From assembly GCF_025629245.1 (NCBI RefSeq), contig NZ_JANZXN010000056.1, positions 1 through 33,213 of the forward strand: a DNA stretch of 33,213 bases. The letters run 5' to 3'. Position 1 is the stretch's first letter. Every line of letters begins with the position of its first letter. Shown here piece by piece: positions 1,749-8,931 of the stretch. Below the pieces are notes generated by a model that saw nothing but the letters and a program-made list of their open reading frames with translations, was not told the DNA's origin and did no database searches. This DNA is from Natronobiforma cellulositropha (GTDB lineage Archaea; Halobacteriota; Halobacteria; Halobacteriales; Natrialbaceae). The translations under genes were made by a program, and so were the position numbers.

Positions 1749-2180
1749 TCAGATGATTGCGGGATCGATCCGGTCGACGACCCCGTCGAAATCGTCGTCG
1801 AAACTGAGGACGGCGTCGATGTCGTAGTGATCGACGAGTGTGACGATAGTTGCATCCGTGAAACTGAGCGATTGATCGTCGTATCGTTCGAAGGTGTCGA
1901 CTGTACGGCTGAAGACCGGTTCAGTCACGTACAGGAGATCGAATACGCGCGGGAACGGTTCGACACCACGGATCCGTTCCCCAACCCGTATCGCCGGTTC
2001 GATTCGTCCCGTCCGTTGACGAACCAAGGTGACGGTTTCGTCGTAGACGTACTCACTGGTGAAGAGACGGCCGTATTCGCCGGTCGTGATCGTCTCGAAC
2101 GCGTCGGTGGCGATACGGTGTCGTGGTGCATCTTCGTCGTGGTGCGCGTAGAAGACGTTCGTGTCGATGAAGAGGCTCAT
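1749..2180 (-). CDS. vapC: PIN-domain toxin of VapC type
   Basis: 143 residues spanning a complete PIN nuclease domain. Acidic residues of the Mg-dependent active site are visible: D6 in the opening SLFIDTNVF, E43/E48 in SEYVYDET, D109 in FTDAT, and D128-D132 near the end. VapC toxins are site-specific RNases, usually acting on tRNA or rRNA, held inactive by a co-transcribed antitoxin. The start codon overlaps the stop of the upstream antitoxin gene by four bases (ATGA), as expected for a translationally coupled toxin-antitoxin pair. The exact RNA target cannot be read from the sequence. The gene ends one base after the hemB remnant's stop codon, on the opposite strand. Confidence 0.85.
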   Translation of the reverse strand: MSLFIDTNVFYAHHDEDAPRHRIATDAFETITTGEYGRLFTSEYVYDETVTLVRQRTGRIEPAIRVGERIRGVEPFPRVFDLLYVTEPVFSRTVDTFERYDDQSLSFTDATIVTLVDHYDIDAVLSFDDDFDGVVDRIDPAII

Positions 2181-2464
2181 TCGAGTTCAGAGCCGTACAG
2201 CGCCTCGTCGATCTCGTCTTCAGTCACAGGGTTTCCGGATGCGACGGTCCCCGAGAGAAACTGCTCGATCTCGTCTTCGGAGAGCCCGTCCCACTCCTCG
2301 CGAAACGAATCGATGAACGACGAGTGCGAGTCGTATGCTGTATCGACGAGCTGTTTTAATATCTCCTGTTGCGTCACCTTTCGTCCGGTCTCGAGTTTGA
2401 TTTCTGCTTGGAGGCGTTCGATGCGGTCTTTCGTCTGTTCGTCCATCTTCACGGAGGTCGACAT
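2177..2464 (-). CDS. vapB: Antitoxin of VapB type (ribbon-helix-helix-like)
   Basis: 95 residues. The N-terminal part (TSVKMDEQTKDRIERLQ, then KVTQQEILKQLVDTA) looks like a short beta strand plus two helices, as in CopG/ribbon-helix-helix DNA-binding antitoxins. The acidic C-terminal half (about residues 50-95) would wrap and inhibit the toxin. It is first in a two-gene operon and overlaps vapC by four bases. A candidate autoregulatory site and TATA element lie just upstream. The family is inferred from fold pattern and neighbour, since antitoxin sequences diverge fast. Confidence 0.75.
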   Translation of the reverse strand: MSTSVKMDEQTKDRIERLQAEIKLETGRKVTQQEILKQLVDTAYDSHSSFIDSFREEWDGLSEDEIEQFLSGTVASGNPVTEDEIDEALYGSELE

Positions 2465-7484: not shown

Positions 7485-8624
7485 ATGACTAATACTGATC
7501 ACCATGGCGAACGATTGGTCGAGGCGAGAGCGATGAGACACGATCGCAGACGGAGCGACGGCGCTGACAGTCACTCGAGCGACGAGAGAAGAGCGCGTCA
7601 CCGACAGCCTCCGGAGCGACAGGTACCGGGTCTTCCAAAATCGGCGTACGCTACTCGGGAAAACGCCGCGCACGTCGACGACCTCGTCGCGCGTTTCGGC
7701 CACCAGCGGGTGCTCGAGTGGGCCGAGACCGGCGGTCTCGAGCCCGGATTCAACACCCCGGCGGGCGAAGAGATCCGCCTCGCTCGAGCGCGAAGTGCGG
7801 CCGCAGGTGTCGAGATTGACACCGCGAGTGTCCAGCGTTCGATCCCGGCGCAGGCCGATCACGGGCCAGCGGGGACGACGGCGACACCTGACGTGGTTCG
7901 GACCGTGCTCTCAGAGCCGGGACACCCACTCGAGGGAGATGTCCGGGCGGAGATGGAAACACGCATGGGATCGACGTTCGGAGACGTCCGACTGCACACC
8001 GGCCCGAGTGCAGCGGCAGCCGCGAGCACACTCGAGGCACGGGCGTTCACAGCCGGGAATCACGTGGTCTTCGGCCGCGGTGAGTACGACCCCGAGAGCA
8101 CGGAGGGGAAATACCTACTCGCACACGAACTGGCCCACGTTCGACAGCAGACCGGTGGCCAGATCAGTATGCTCCCCCAGGAAGGGAGTTCGCTCGTGAT
8201 CGATCCCGACCCGGTCCTCGAGCGGGAAGCCGACGAGACAACCACGCGAGCAGTGTCGGCCGAAGAAACGGTAGTCGCCACTCGTCTGGGAACCGGCATC
8301 TACATACAGCGGATGATGAGCGCGTTGGGCGTCACATTTCCGAAGGAACAGCTTCAGAGCAAGATTAAACACGGTACAGACTTCGGTGTCGCGAAAAACT
8401 GGAGTAAAAAGAACGGAAAACGGTTTCAGCAGGCACTCGAGGACCATATCAACGACAGCAACACCCAGCAAATCAATGGGACCTATCGTGGGAAGAATGT
8501 AACACACTACTATAATCCCACCACGGGTCTCGTCGTCATCGTCAAAAAGAACGGTGAGTTTCTTTCCGGCTGGAAGCTCAGCCCGGACCAGGAGTACTAT
8601 CTGACGACCAGCGGTTCACTATGA
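7485..8624 (+). CDS. DUF4157 (eCIS_core) protein with colicin-D-like tRNase tip
   Basis: 379 residues. Residues about 1-140 are polar and arginine-rich with no signal peptide. Residues 143-222 form a DUF4157/eCIS_core domain with a metalloprotease-like HELAH (214-218) in LLAHELAHVRQQ and a following LEREAD (245-250). Residues about 284-379 resemble the colicin D nuclease domain throughout: KHGTDFG, a central GTYRG, then YNPTTGLVVIVKKNGEFLSGW. Colicin D cleaves the anticodon loop of arginine tRNAs using H611 within K-x-K-H; here K293, K295 and H296 occupy that stretch, and the conserved S-G-W is 361-363. DUF4157 proteins are commonly linked to extracellular contractile injection systems and act as leader or cargo for toxin domains. 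The tip is AT-richer than the rest. The immunity gene follows after 4 bases. Confidence 0.88.
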   Translation: MTNTDHHGERLVEARAMRHDRRRSDGADSHSSDERRARHRQPPERQVPGLPKSAYATRENAAHVDDLVARFGHQRVLEWAETGGLEPGFNTPAGEEIRLARARSAAAGVEIDTASVQRSIPAQADHGPAGTTATPDVVRTVLSEPGHPLEGDVRAEMETRMGSTFGDVRLHTGPSAAAAASTLEARAFTAGNHVVFGRGEYDPESTEGKYLLAHELAHVRQQTGGQISMLPQEGSSLVIDPDPVLEREADETTTRAVSAEETVVATRLGTGIYIQRMMSALGVTFPKEQLQSKIKHGTDFGVAKNWSKKNGKRFQQALEDHINDSNTQQINGTYRGKNVTHYYNPTTGLVVIVKKNGEFLSGWKLSPDQEYYLTTSGSL

Positions 8625-8628
8625 GGCG

Positions 8629-8931
8629 ATGTTCGTGAACGAACGAGAAATTATATCCAAGTACCGGACCATGATCGGGAGGTATCGAGCGGGTGAACTG
8701 GACGCAGAGACGTTTACAGAGACGTATCTCGAGACGTTCAAAACCGAGACCGGCGGGCTCTCCGAGGCGACCTACCGGATACTGCAGACGCTGTTCGCCG
8801 AGGCTGACGCCTACTGTGCGGACCCGGCCCTGCGCGACGAGTGGGACATCGACGAAGCGGAGCTACGCGAGGCCGTCGCGGACGCCGATACGAAACTCGA
8901 GGCACGGGCGCAGGCGATAGGCGAAGAGTAG
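8629..8931 (+). CDS. Colicin-D-immunity-like protein, cognate to the upstream toxin
   Basis: 100 residues, acidic, all-helical by eye, cytoplasmic. The pattern F-x-E-x-YL-x-x-FK...LS-x-x-x-Y-x-IL-x-x-LF-x-x-A-DAYC-x-D-x-x-LR...DIDE-x-ELR-x-x-V fits the Colicin_immun (PF09204) family that inhibits colicin-D-type nucleases by mimicking tRNA with an acidic surface. The ATG is four bases after the toxin's stop, so expression is coupled and the producer is protected. The start at 8629 keeps the predicted first helix; M at 8671 is a less likely alternative. The family call is from memory of conserved residues, and the position is strong support. Confidence 0.8.
   Translation: MFVNEREIISKYRTMIGRYRAGELDAETFTETYLETFKTETGGLSEATYRILQTLFAEADAYCADPALRDEWDIDEAELREAVADADTKLEARAQAIGEE

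What the first reader, a model, noticed from the sequence alone, without database searches (positions are those of the whole stretch)
7485..8931. Archaeal colicin-D-type tRNase on a DUF4157 (eCIS_core) carrier, with adjacent immunity gene
The C-terminal 96 residues match the colicin D nuclease along their whole length, including K293-x-K295-H296 at the place of the catalytic K-x-K-H, GTYRG, and EFLSGW. The N-terminal part is a DUF4157 domain with HELAH, known mainly from cargo of extracellular contractile injection systems. A 100-residue acidic protein of the colicin-D-immunity type starts 4 bases later. Together they form a polymorphic toxin-immunity pair aimed at tRNA in a haloarchaeon. The match to colicin D and its immunity family is from remembered sequence; the weapon role and delivery route are inference, and no injection-system genes lie in this window.
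Basis: partly seen in the sequence, partly recalled or inferred. Interest (0 to 1): 0.87.

Follow-up and report, generated by a model that had tools for sequence, protein, structure and literature searches.

The report
Injected tRNA-cutting toxin in haloarchaeon
A salt-loving archaeon carries a two-gene weapon, a close copy of the bacterial tRNA-cutting toxin colicin D fused to the carrier domain of injected toxins plus its antidote, and close relatives carry stray antidotes matching each other's toxins, as expected if archaea really fight with it.

Summary
Window 7485-8624 encodes a DUF4157 (eCIS_core) carrier fused to a colicin-D nuclease domain. Window 8629-8931 encodes a colicin-D-type immunity protein. 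Profiles, AlphaFold models and PDB fold searches all return colicin D and ImmD as best hits. H296, K293, K295, D299, S361 and W363 are kept; the residue matching K607 is Ser.

The delivery machine missing from the window is elsewhere in the genome: one contractile-injection gene cluster on contig C60, plus 33 further DUF4157 matches. In 391 Halobacteria, DUF4157 tracks the injection-tube gene (45 of 51 strong carriers). All four genomes with DUF4157-linked colicin D have it.

New here: stray ImmD genes. Two Halovivax-group species each hold an orphan immunity gene 92% identical to the other's cognate one. Haloferax elongans, a published T6SS user, keeps a displaced, frameshifted copy with intact immunity.

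DUF4157 effectors with partners are proven in Halogeometricum borinquense (PMC11566945), and the colicin D/DUF4157/ImmD/euryarchaeota combination was tabulated in 2012 (PMC3482391). So: a new member of a known kind. The exact RNA target and injection are inferred.

The parts
7485..8624 (+). DUF4157-colicin D effector gene, 379 aa as called; the likely real start is Met17 at 7533 (363 aa)
7533..7634 (+). Arg-rich N-terminal tail (residues 17-50, net charge +3, pI 11.5), resembling the tails of DUF4157 effectors of other genera; possible loading signal (inference)
7926..8159 (+). DUF4157/eCIS_core domain (PF13699, profile 1-78 of 79)
8124..8138 (+). HELAH (residues 214-218), zinc metallopeptidase motif
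8307..8312 (+). Gln275-Arg276 (YIQR), carrier/toxin junction 53 residues after HELAHVRQ; same place in 30 of 32 DUF4157 ORFs of this genome (offset 50-56) and in 19 of 27 from other genomes (offset 52-54)
8349..8600 (+). Colicin_D nuclease domain (PF11429, residues 289-372); G+C of residues 278-379 is 50% against 65% for the carrier
8361..8372 (+). K293-I294-K295-H296, equivalent of colicin D K608-Y-K610-H611 (catalytic His)
8565..8573 (+). S361-G362-W363, aligned with S677 and W679 of colicin D
8629..8931 (+). Immunity gene, 100 aa, net charge -13, ImmD type (PF09204), four-helix fold

Best explanation
The two genes are an effector-immunity pair of a haloarchaeal contractile injection system (T6SS-like). 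The DUF4157 carrier with its basic N-terminal tail takes the C-terminal colicin-D domain onto the needle. The domain is injected into neighbouring archaea and cuts tRNA, most likely tRNA-Arg between positions 38 and 39 of the anticodon loop, with His296 as general base, stopping translation. The downstream acidic four-helix protein covers the basic active face and protects the producer and its kin. Toxin modules are swapped behind a shared carrier, and old or foreign immunity genes are kept as shields. Shown here: domain families, folds, active-site residues, gene order, presence of the injection cluster in the genome, co-occurrence across the class, and orphan and reciprocal immunity genes. 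Inferred: injection of this protein, the tRNA target, release by cleavage at the QR junction, and neutralisation.
For: Toxin: Pfam E 9e-24; PDB colicin D by sequence and by fold, TM 0.82 at 1.7 A; active-site residues kept. Immunity: PF09204 E 7e-15, profile hit to ImmD 1tfk_B E 3.6e-10, fold hit ImmD first. Delivery: contractile injection cluster on C60 with sheath, three tube genes, gp25, two baseplate J proteins, spike OB, hub and Tail_P2_I. In 391 Halobacteria 45 of 51 genomes with a strong DUF4157 match have the tube gene, against 35 of 340 without such a match (Fisher p 2e-30, not corrected for kinship). 4 of 4 genomes with DUF4157-linked colicin D have it, and the 5 genomes with colicin D on other carriers have neither DUF4157 nor tube. 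Published: DUF4157 proteins of H. borinquense are secreted in a sheath-dependent way, and several are toxic unless co-expressed with the downstream gene (PMC11566945). Conflict: ImmD genes without colicin D in 4 genomes (G077, G112 partial, G281, G345) and extra orphans in G043 and G071, which match each other's cognate immunity at 92% while the two cognate proteins share 43%.
Against: No experiment here. The K607 position of colicin D is Ser292 (K, R or S in homologues). The injection cluster is on another contig, so the link to this gene is by genome and family, not by operon. 6 of 51 genomes with a strong DUF4157 match lack a tube hit. Relatives of the domain cut other RNA sites (PMC9990079, PMC12585627). 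Archaea have RtcB ligase (this genome too), and RtcAB in E. coli improves survival of colicin D (PMC5175333), so killing power in archaea is uncertain. The reciprocal-immunity case rests on one pair of species.
Confidence: 0.8

Rival explanations
1. Same weapon, different substrate: the domain is a colicin-D-fold RNase that cuts another tRNA, another position (for example the acceptor stem) or RNA in general.
For: CdiA-CT of EC3006 and Kp342 are classed as Colicin_D but cut the acceptor stem (PMC9990079); CT-O32:H37 has the fold and is a non-specific RNase needing EF-Tu (PMC12585627). The three tRNA-Arg found here have A38, but so do many other tRNAs of this genome, so sequence does not single out tRNA-Arg. 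K607 is replaced by Ser.
Against: Sequence and fold are nearest to colicin D itself (43-46% identity, TM 0.82), and the O32:H37 toxin is clearly further (22%, TM 0.59). The immunity partner is of ImmD type.
Confidence: 0.3
2. It leaves the cell by a free extracellular particle or another secretion route rather than the membrane-bound T6SS-like machine.
For: DUF4157 is mainly known from eCIS operons (PMC8213781). Haloarchaeal CIS fall into two clades, and only one has the putative membrane anchor (PMC11566945); which clade C60 belongs to was not determined.
Against: The only sheath and tube matches in this genome are in one cluster on C60, and the one functional study in haloarchaea found membrane-bound machines.
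Confidence: 0.25
3. It is an intracellular toxin-antitoxin pair for stress or phage defence, not a weapon.
For: Two-gene operon with tight spacing; no match in PADLOC either way.
Against: The toxin is fused to a delivery carrier shared with about 30 other variable C-termini in the genome, and orphan and reciprocal immunity genes are the mark of exchange between cells.
Confidence: 0.06
4. A decaying or unused insertion.
For: The Haloferax elongans copy is headless and frameshifted, and G043 holds a half-decayed DUF4157 before an orphan ImmD.
Against: In this genome both genes are intact, with carrier, junction, catalytic residues and immunity all complete.
Confidence: 0.05

Closest known systems
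Colicin D / ImmD of Escherichia coli (PDB 1v74, 1tfo, 5znm)
   Same: Nuclease domain 43-46% identical, same fold (TM 0.82), catalytic K-x-K-H, S and W kept; immunity of the same family and fold
   [quoted passage not shown] archaeal host; K607 replaced by Ser; immunity sequence too far apart to be found by single-sequence search
DUF4157 T6SS effectors of Halogeometricum borinquense, Hbor_02990, Hbor_38900 and others (PMC11566945)
   Same: DUF4157 carrier, downstream partner gene, contractile injection cluster in the genome, some members encoded away from the cluster
   Different: No tRNase or colicin D domain is mentioned for them in that paper (no occurrence of 'colicin' or 'tRNA'); secretion and toxicity are proven there and not here
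PVC-metallopeptidase polymorphic toxins with Tox-ColicinD and ImmD (Zhang et al. 2012, PMC3482391)
   Same: The same combination of domains and immunity, with euryarchaeota in the listed range
   Different: The table pools the range over the family; this exact protein, its genome context and its orphan immunity genes are not described in the text read here
DUF4157...Colicin_D protein of a deltaproteobacterial bin (locus L062)
   Same: eCIS_core E 1.8e-24 and Colicin_D E 4.8e-24 in one protein
   Different: 1127 aa with a long middle part; no ImmD-like gene detected behind it
T6SS immunity-gene arrays of Vibrio cholerae (PMC5361080)
   Same: Orphan immunity genes matching the cognate ones of relatives; displaced effectors with kept immunity
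   Different: Archaea, DUF4157 carriers, colicin-D immunity

Membership tests
Colicin_D nuclease (PF11429) | Profile match over the whole domain above the curated cut-off | tested here: met
   84.1 bits against cut-off 25, profile 1-83 of 84
Colicin_D nuclease (PF11429) | Colicin D fold | tested here: met
   pLDDT 95.5; 1tfo_A TM 0.82, rmsd 1.7 A, rank 1
Colicin_D nuclease (PF11429) | K608, H611, D614, S677 (called essential in PMC3482391), plus K610 and W679 | tested here: met
   K293, H296, D299, S361; K295, W363
Colicin_D nuclease (PF11429) | K607 (called essential in PMC3482391) | tested here: not met
   Ser292; among 90 homologues K 61, R 15, S 13, so the position is variable in the family; the homologue set was gathered with a pattern that allows only S, K or R there
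Colicin_D nuclease (PF11429) | Cleavage of tRNA-Arg between 38 and 39 | not testable with these tools
   needs a biochemical assay
Colicin D immunity (PF09204) | Profile match and ImmD fold | tested here: met
   55.8 bits against cut-off 22; ImmD first in profile and fold searches
Colicin D immunity (PF09204) | Neutralises the toxin | not testable with these tools
   no complex prediction or assay available
DUF4157 / eCIS_core effector | eCIS_core domain with HExxH | tested here: met
   107.5 bits against cut-off 22; HELAH 214-218
Haloarchaeal T6SS effector | Contractile injection cluster in the same genome | tested here: met
   C60, about 73-97 kb
Haloarchaeal T6SS effector | Downstream immunity partner | tested here: met
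   8629-8931
Haloarchaeal T6SS effector | Putative membrane anchor (homologue of Hbor_38620) | not tested
   no sequence of the anchor at hand
Haloarchaeal T6SS effector | Sheath-dependent secretion and toxicity | not testable with these tools
   needs mutants
Polymorphic toxin system | One carrier with many unrelated C-terminal toxin modules | tested here: met
   34 DUF4157 matches in the genome; C-termini fall into 16 groups

The most novel reading that the evidence does not exclude
Haloarchaea carry on an arms race with injected tRNases in the manner of Vibrio T6SS: DUF4157 effector cassettes displace one another, the colicin-D immunity genes stay behind, and species protect themselves against a neighbour's toxin with orphan immunity genes (reciprocal in two Halovivax-group species). 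RtcB, whose substrate is the kind of RNA end that colicin D leaves, is a second, repair-based line of defence in archaea.
Probability: 0.45. Interest if true: 0.72.

Novelty: new member of a known kind. Interest (0 to 1): 0.56.

Why it matters
The proven haloarchaeal T6SS toxins have no stated target in the passages read. This one has a definite predicted target (tRNA, probably tRNA-Arg), a predicted active site and a paired immunity protein, so the killing mechanism of an archaeal injection system becomes directly testable in a tractable host. In the library searched I found no earlier report of orphan and reciprocal immunity genes in archaea; they give ready-made toxin and immunity combinations to test for specificity. 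Archaea also use RtcB, the ligase that helps E. coli survive colicin D, so the pair tests whether RNA repair acts as immunity.

Tried and rejected
A genome-contig scan with the single toxin sequence found nothing; the alignment A1 found 80 kept loci. The insertion-site (empty-site) test failed: hemL and the HTTM gene are not found next to each other in the relatives whose loci were read, so there is no clean empty site. tRNA-Arg anticodon loops of the genome (UCU, CCU, UCG; only 30 of 43 tRNA loci fetched) all have A38 but so do many other tRNAs; not informative. The toxin tree (104 columns) is too poorly resolved to count transfers: the Halobacteria fall into a mixed group with bacterial rows. 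Sigma-70 promoter and terminator scan: nothing useful, as expected for an archaeon. No match in phage records or PADLOC; plasmid matches of the toxin domain are all enterobacterial or Yersiniaceae. The toxin-immunity complex could not be modelled with the tool (single chains only).

Full report
What is there. ORF 7485-8624 on the + strand (379 aa) is followed after 4 bases by ORF 8629-8931 (100 aa). Pfam gives eCIS_core/DUF4157 (E 3.9e-31, residues 148-225) and Colicin_D (E 9.1e-24, residues 289-372) for the first and Colicin_immun (E 7.1e-15) for the second. The C-terminal domain finds only colicin D in the PDB by sequence (1tfo, 1v74, 5znm, 1tfk; best E 5e-20). It is 46% identical over 91 residues to plasmid colicin D of E. 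coli. AlphaFold models built on alignments of homologues are confident (pLDDT 95.5 and 92.0). Against the PDB the toxin model matches colicin D first (TM 0.82, 1.7 A, 43% identity) and the immunity model matches ImmD first (Foldseek probability 1.00, TM 0.67/0.76, E 0.014).

Active site. By the alignment, colicin D K608, K610, H611, D614, S677 and W679 correspond to K293, K295, H296, D299, S361 and W363. K607, which PMC3482391 lists among residues essential in colicin D, corresponds to Ser292. In 90 homologues the position is K (61), R (15) or S (13), so it is not fixed in the family; residues 289-297 were partly pre-selected by the search pattern. Residues 278-379 have net charge +5 (pI 9.5) and the immunity protein -13.

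The start. Met17 (7533) begins an Arg-rich tail that resembles the tails of DUF4157 effectors from other genera (MxRRxRR...), so 7533 is the more likely start. This is inference from the alignment.

The junction. In 30 of 32 DUF4157 ORFs of this genome a Gln-Arg pair lies 50-56 residues behind the HExxH motif and marks the end of the shared carrier. It lies 52-54 residues behind in 19 of 27 DUF4157 ORFs taken from 20 other genomes; the exceptions are mostly long proteins. In the window it is Gln275-Arg276. A processing site cut by the DUF4157 peptidase would fit the releasing-peptidase role proposed in PMC3482391, but nothing here shows cleavage.

Delivery. The genome (G000, 3.76 Mb, 60 contigs) holds one contractile injection cluster, on C60 at about 73-97 kb: sheath, three tube proteins, gp25, two baseplate J proteins, spike OB protein, hub and Tail_P2_I. 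It has 34 DUF4157 matches and one Colicin_D match. Across 391 Halobacteria genomes, 51 have a strong DUF4157 match (E at most 1e-8) and 45 of those have the tube gene; 35 have the tube only and 305 neither (Fisher p 2e-30, no correction for kinship). Colicin_D occurs in 9 genomes. The 4 genomes where it is linked to DUF4157 (the window genome, G043, G071, G210) all have the tube; the 5 where it sits on another carrier have neither tube nor DUF4157. Four of those five are one genus, so this is not five independent cases. In Halogeometricum borinquense DUF4157 proteins are released in a sheath-dependent way, and four toxins were tolerated in H. volcanii only together with the downstream gene (PMC11566945). 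That is the direct precedent for how the present pair would work.

Signs of use. PF09204 is found in 12 of the 391 genomes. Four of them (G077, G112 partial, G281, G345) have no Colicin_D match. G043 and G071 belong to one genus; G071 shares DNA with Halovivax asiaticus JCM 14624 (locus L064). Each has its own DUF4157-colicin D gene with cognate immunity plus orphan ImmD genes. The G043 orphan is 92% identical to the G071 cognate immunity, and the G071 orphan is 92% identical to the G043 cognate immunity, while the two cognate proteins share 43%. The G043 orphan stands behind a decayed half DUF4157 next to another DUF4157 effector. The G071 orphan stands in an array with a SUKH-like gene and three copies of a 112-136 aa protein whose relatives also follow the G043 toxin-immunity pair. 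Haloferax elongans (G210 = L054), which lyses H. volcanii on contact and has a T6SS (PMC11566945), keeps a colicin-D cassette whose DUF4157 part is truncated and in another frame, with an intact immunity gene, directly behind another DUF4157 effector and its partner. This is the order expected from displacement of effectors as described for Vibrio cholerae (PMC5361080). Reading these orphans as shields against neighbours is inference.

Origin. The toxin module has 50% G+C against 65% for the carrier, 61% for the immunity gene and 68% for hemL, and colicin-D domains occur on many carriers in bacteria, among them Rhs proteins and one DUF4157 protein. This fits modular transfer. The domain tree is too poorly resolved to give direction.

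Target. tRNA-Arg anticodon cleavage rests on the close relation to colicin D. Other members or structural relatives cut acceptor stems or RNA in general (PMC9990079, PMC12585627). I put about 0.6 on tRNA-Arg 38/39, about 0.9 on an RNase and about 0.8 on an injected effector with immunity.

Novelty. The domain combination, immunity family and euryarchaeal range stand in a 2012 table (PMC3482391). Archaeal colicin D loci were pointed out in 2019 (PMC6393860), and DUF4157 effectors with partners were proven in haloarchaea in 2024 (PMC11566945). The pair is therefore a new member of a known kind. What I did not find in the library is the reciprocal and orphan immunity pattern in archaea (search); absence there is not proof of novelty.

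Noticed in passing
G000, contigs C2, C8, C10, C12, C16, C21, C60 and others (loci L011-L033): 34 DUF4157 matches in one haloarchaeal genome, many near contig ends, with C-termini in 16 groups; of ten full proteins scanned, only two C-termini have a toxin-like Pfam hit: L023 a weak PBECR1 RNase match and L027 an SLT transglycosylase domain.
   Followed up: partly
L012:279-1058, L016:12201-12575, L020:2117-2944, L012:2059-2805, L018:4456-5319, L017:616-1809, L030:4324-5154: Headless cassettes: DUF4157 genes that begin inside the domain. Several junctions, including carrier-to-carrier fusions (L017), lie at a CTCGAGG sequence. CTCGAG is about 11 times over-represented in the window (129 against 11 expected), so recombination at this motif is possible but not shown.
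   Followed up: partly
L130 (G077), L218 (G071), L219 (G043), L139 (G281): Arrays of immunity-like genes: ImmD next to SUKH/Smi1-Knr4 proteins and repeated 112-136 aa proteins with a GWSWN-type motif and no Pfam match; candidates for new immunity families.
   Followed up: partly
L046-L049, L086, L119: Colicin-D domains in Haloarcula and relatives on a different carrier (VCNSPC motif, no other Pfam match) with their own ImmD genes, in genomes without DUF4157 or injection tube: a second haloarchaeal polymorphic toxin carrier with unknown delivery.
   Followed up: no
L040:7675-17970 (G000 C60): A 3432-aa protein with CARDB repeats, an M26-type N-terminal region and a beta-lactamase-like end lies next to the injection cluster.
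   Followed up: no
L062: A deltaproteobacterial bin encodes a 1127-aa DUF4157...colicin D protein, showing the same architecture in bacteria.
   Followed up: partly
window 1749-2464: A PIN-like protein and a small upstream protein that look by eye like a VapBC-type toxin-antitoxin pair; not checked with profiles.
   Followed up: no
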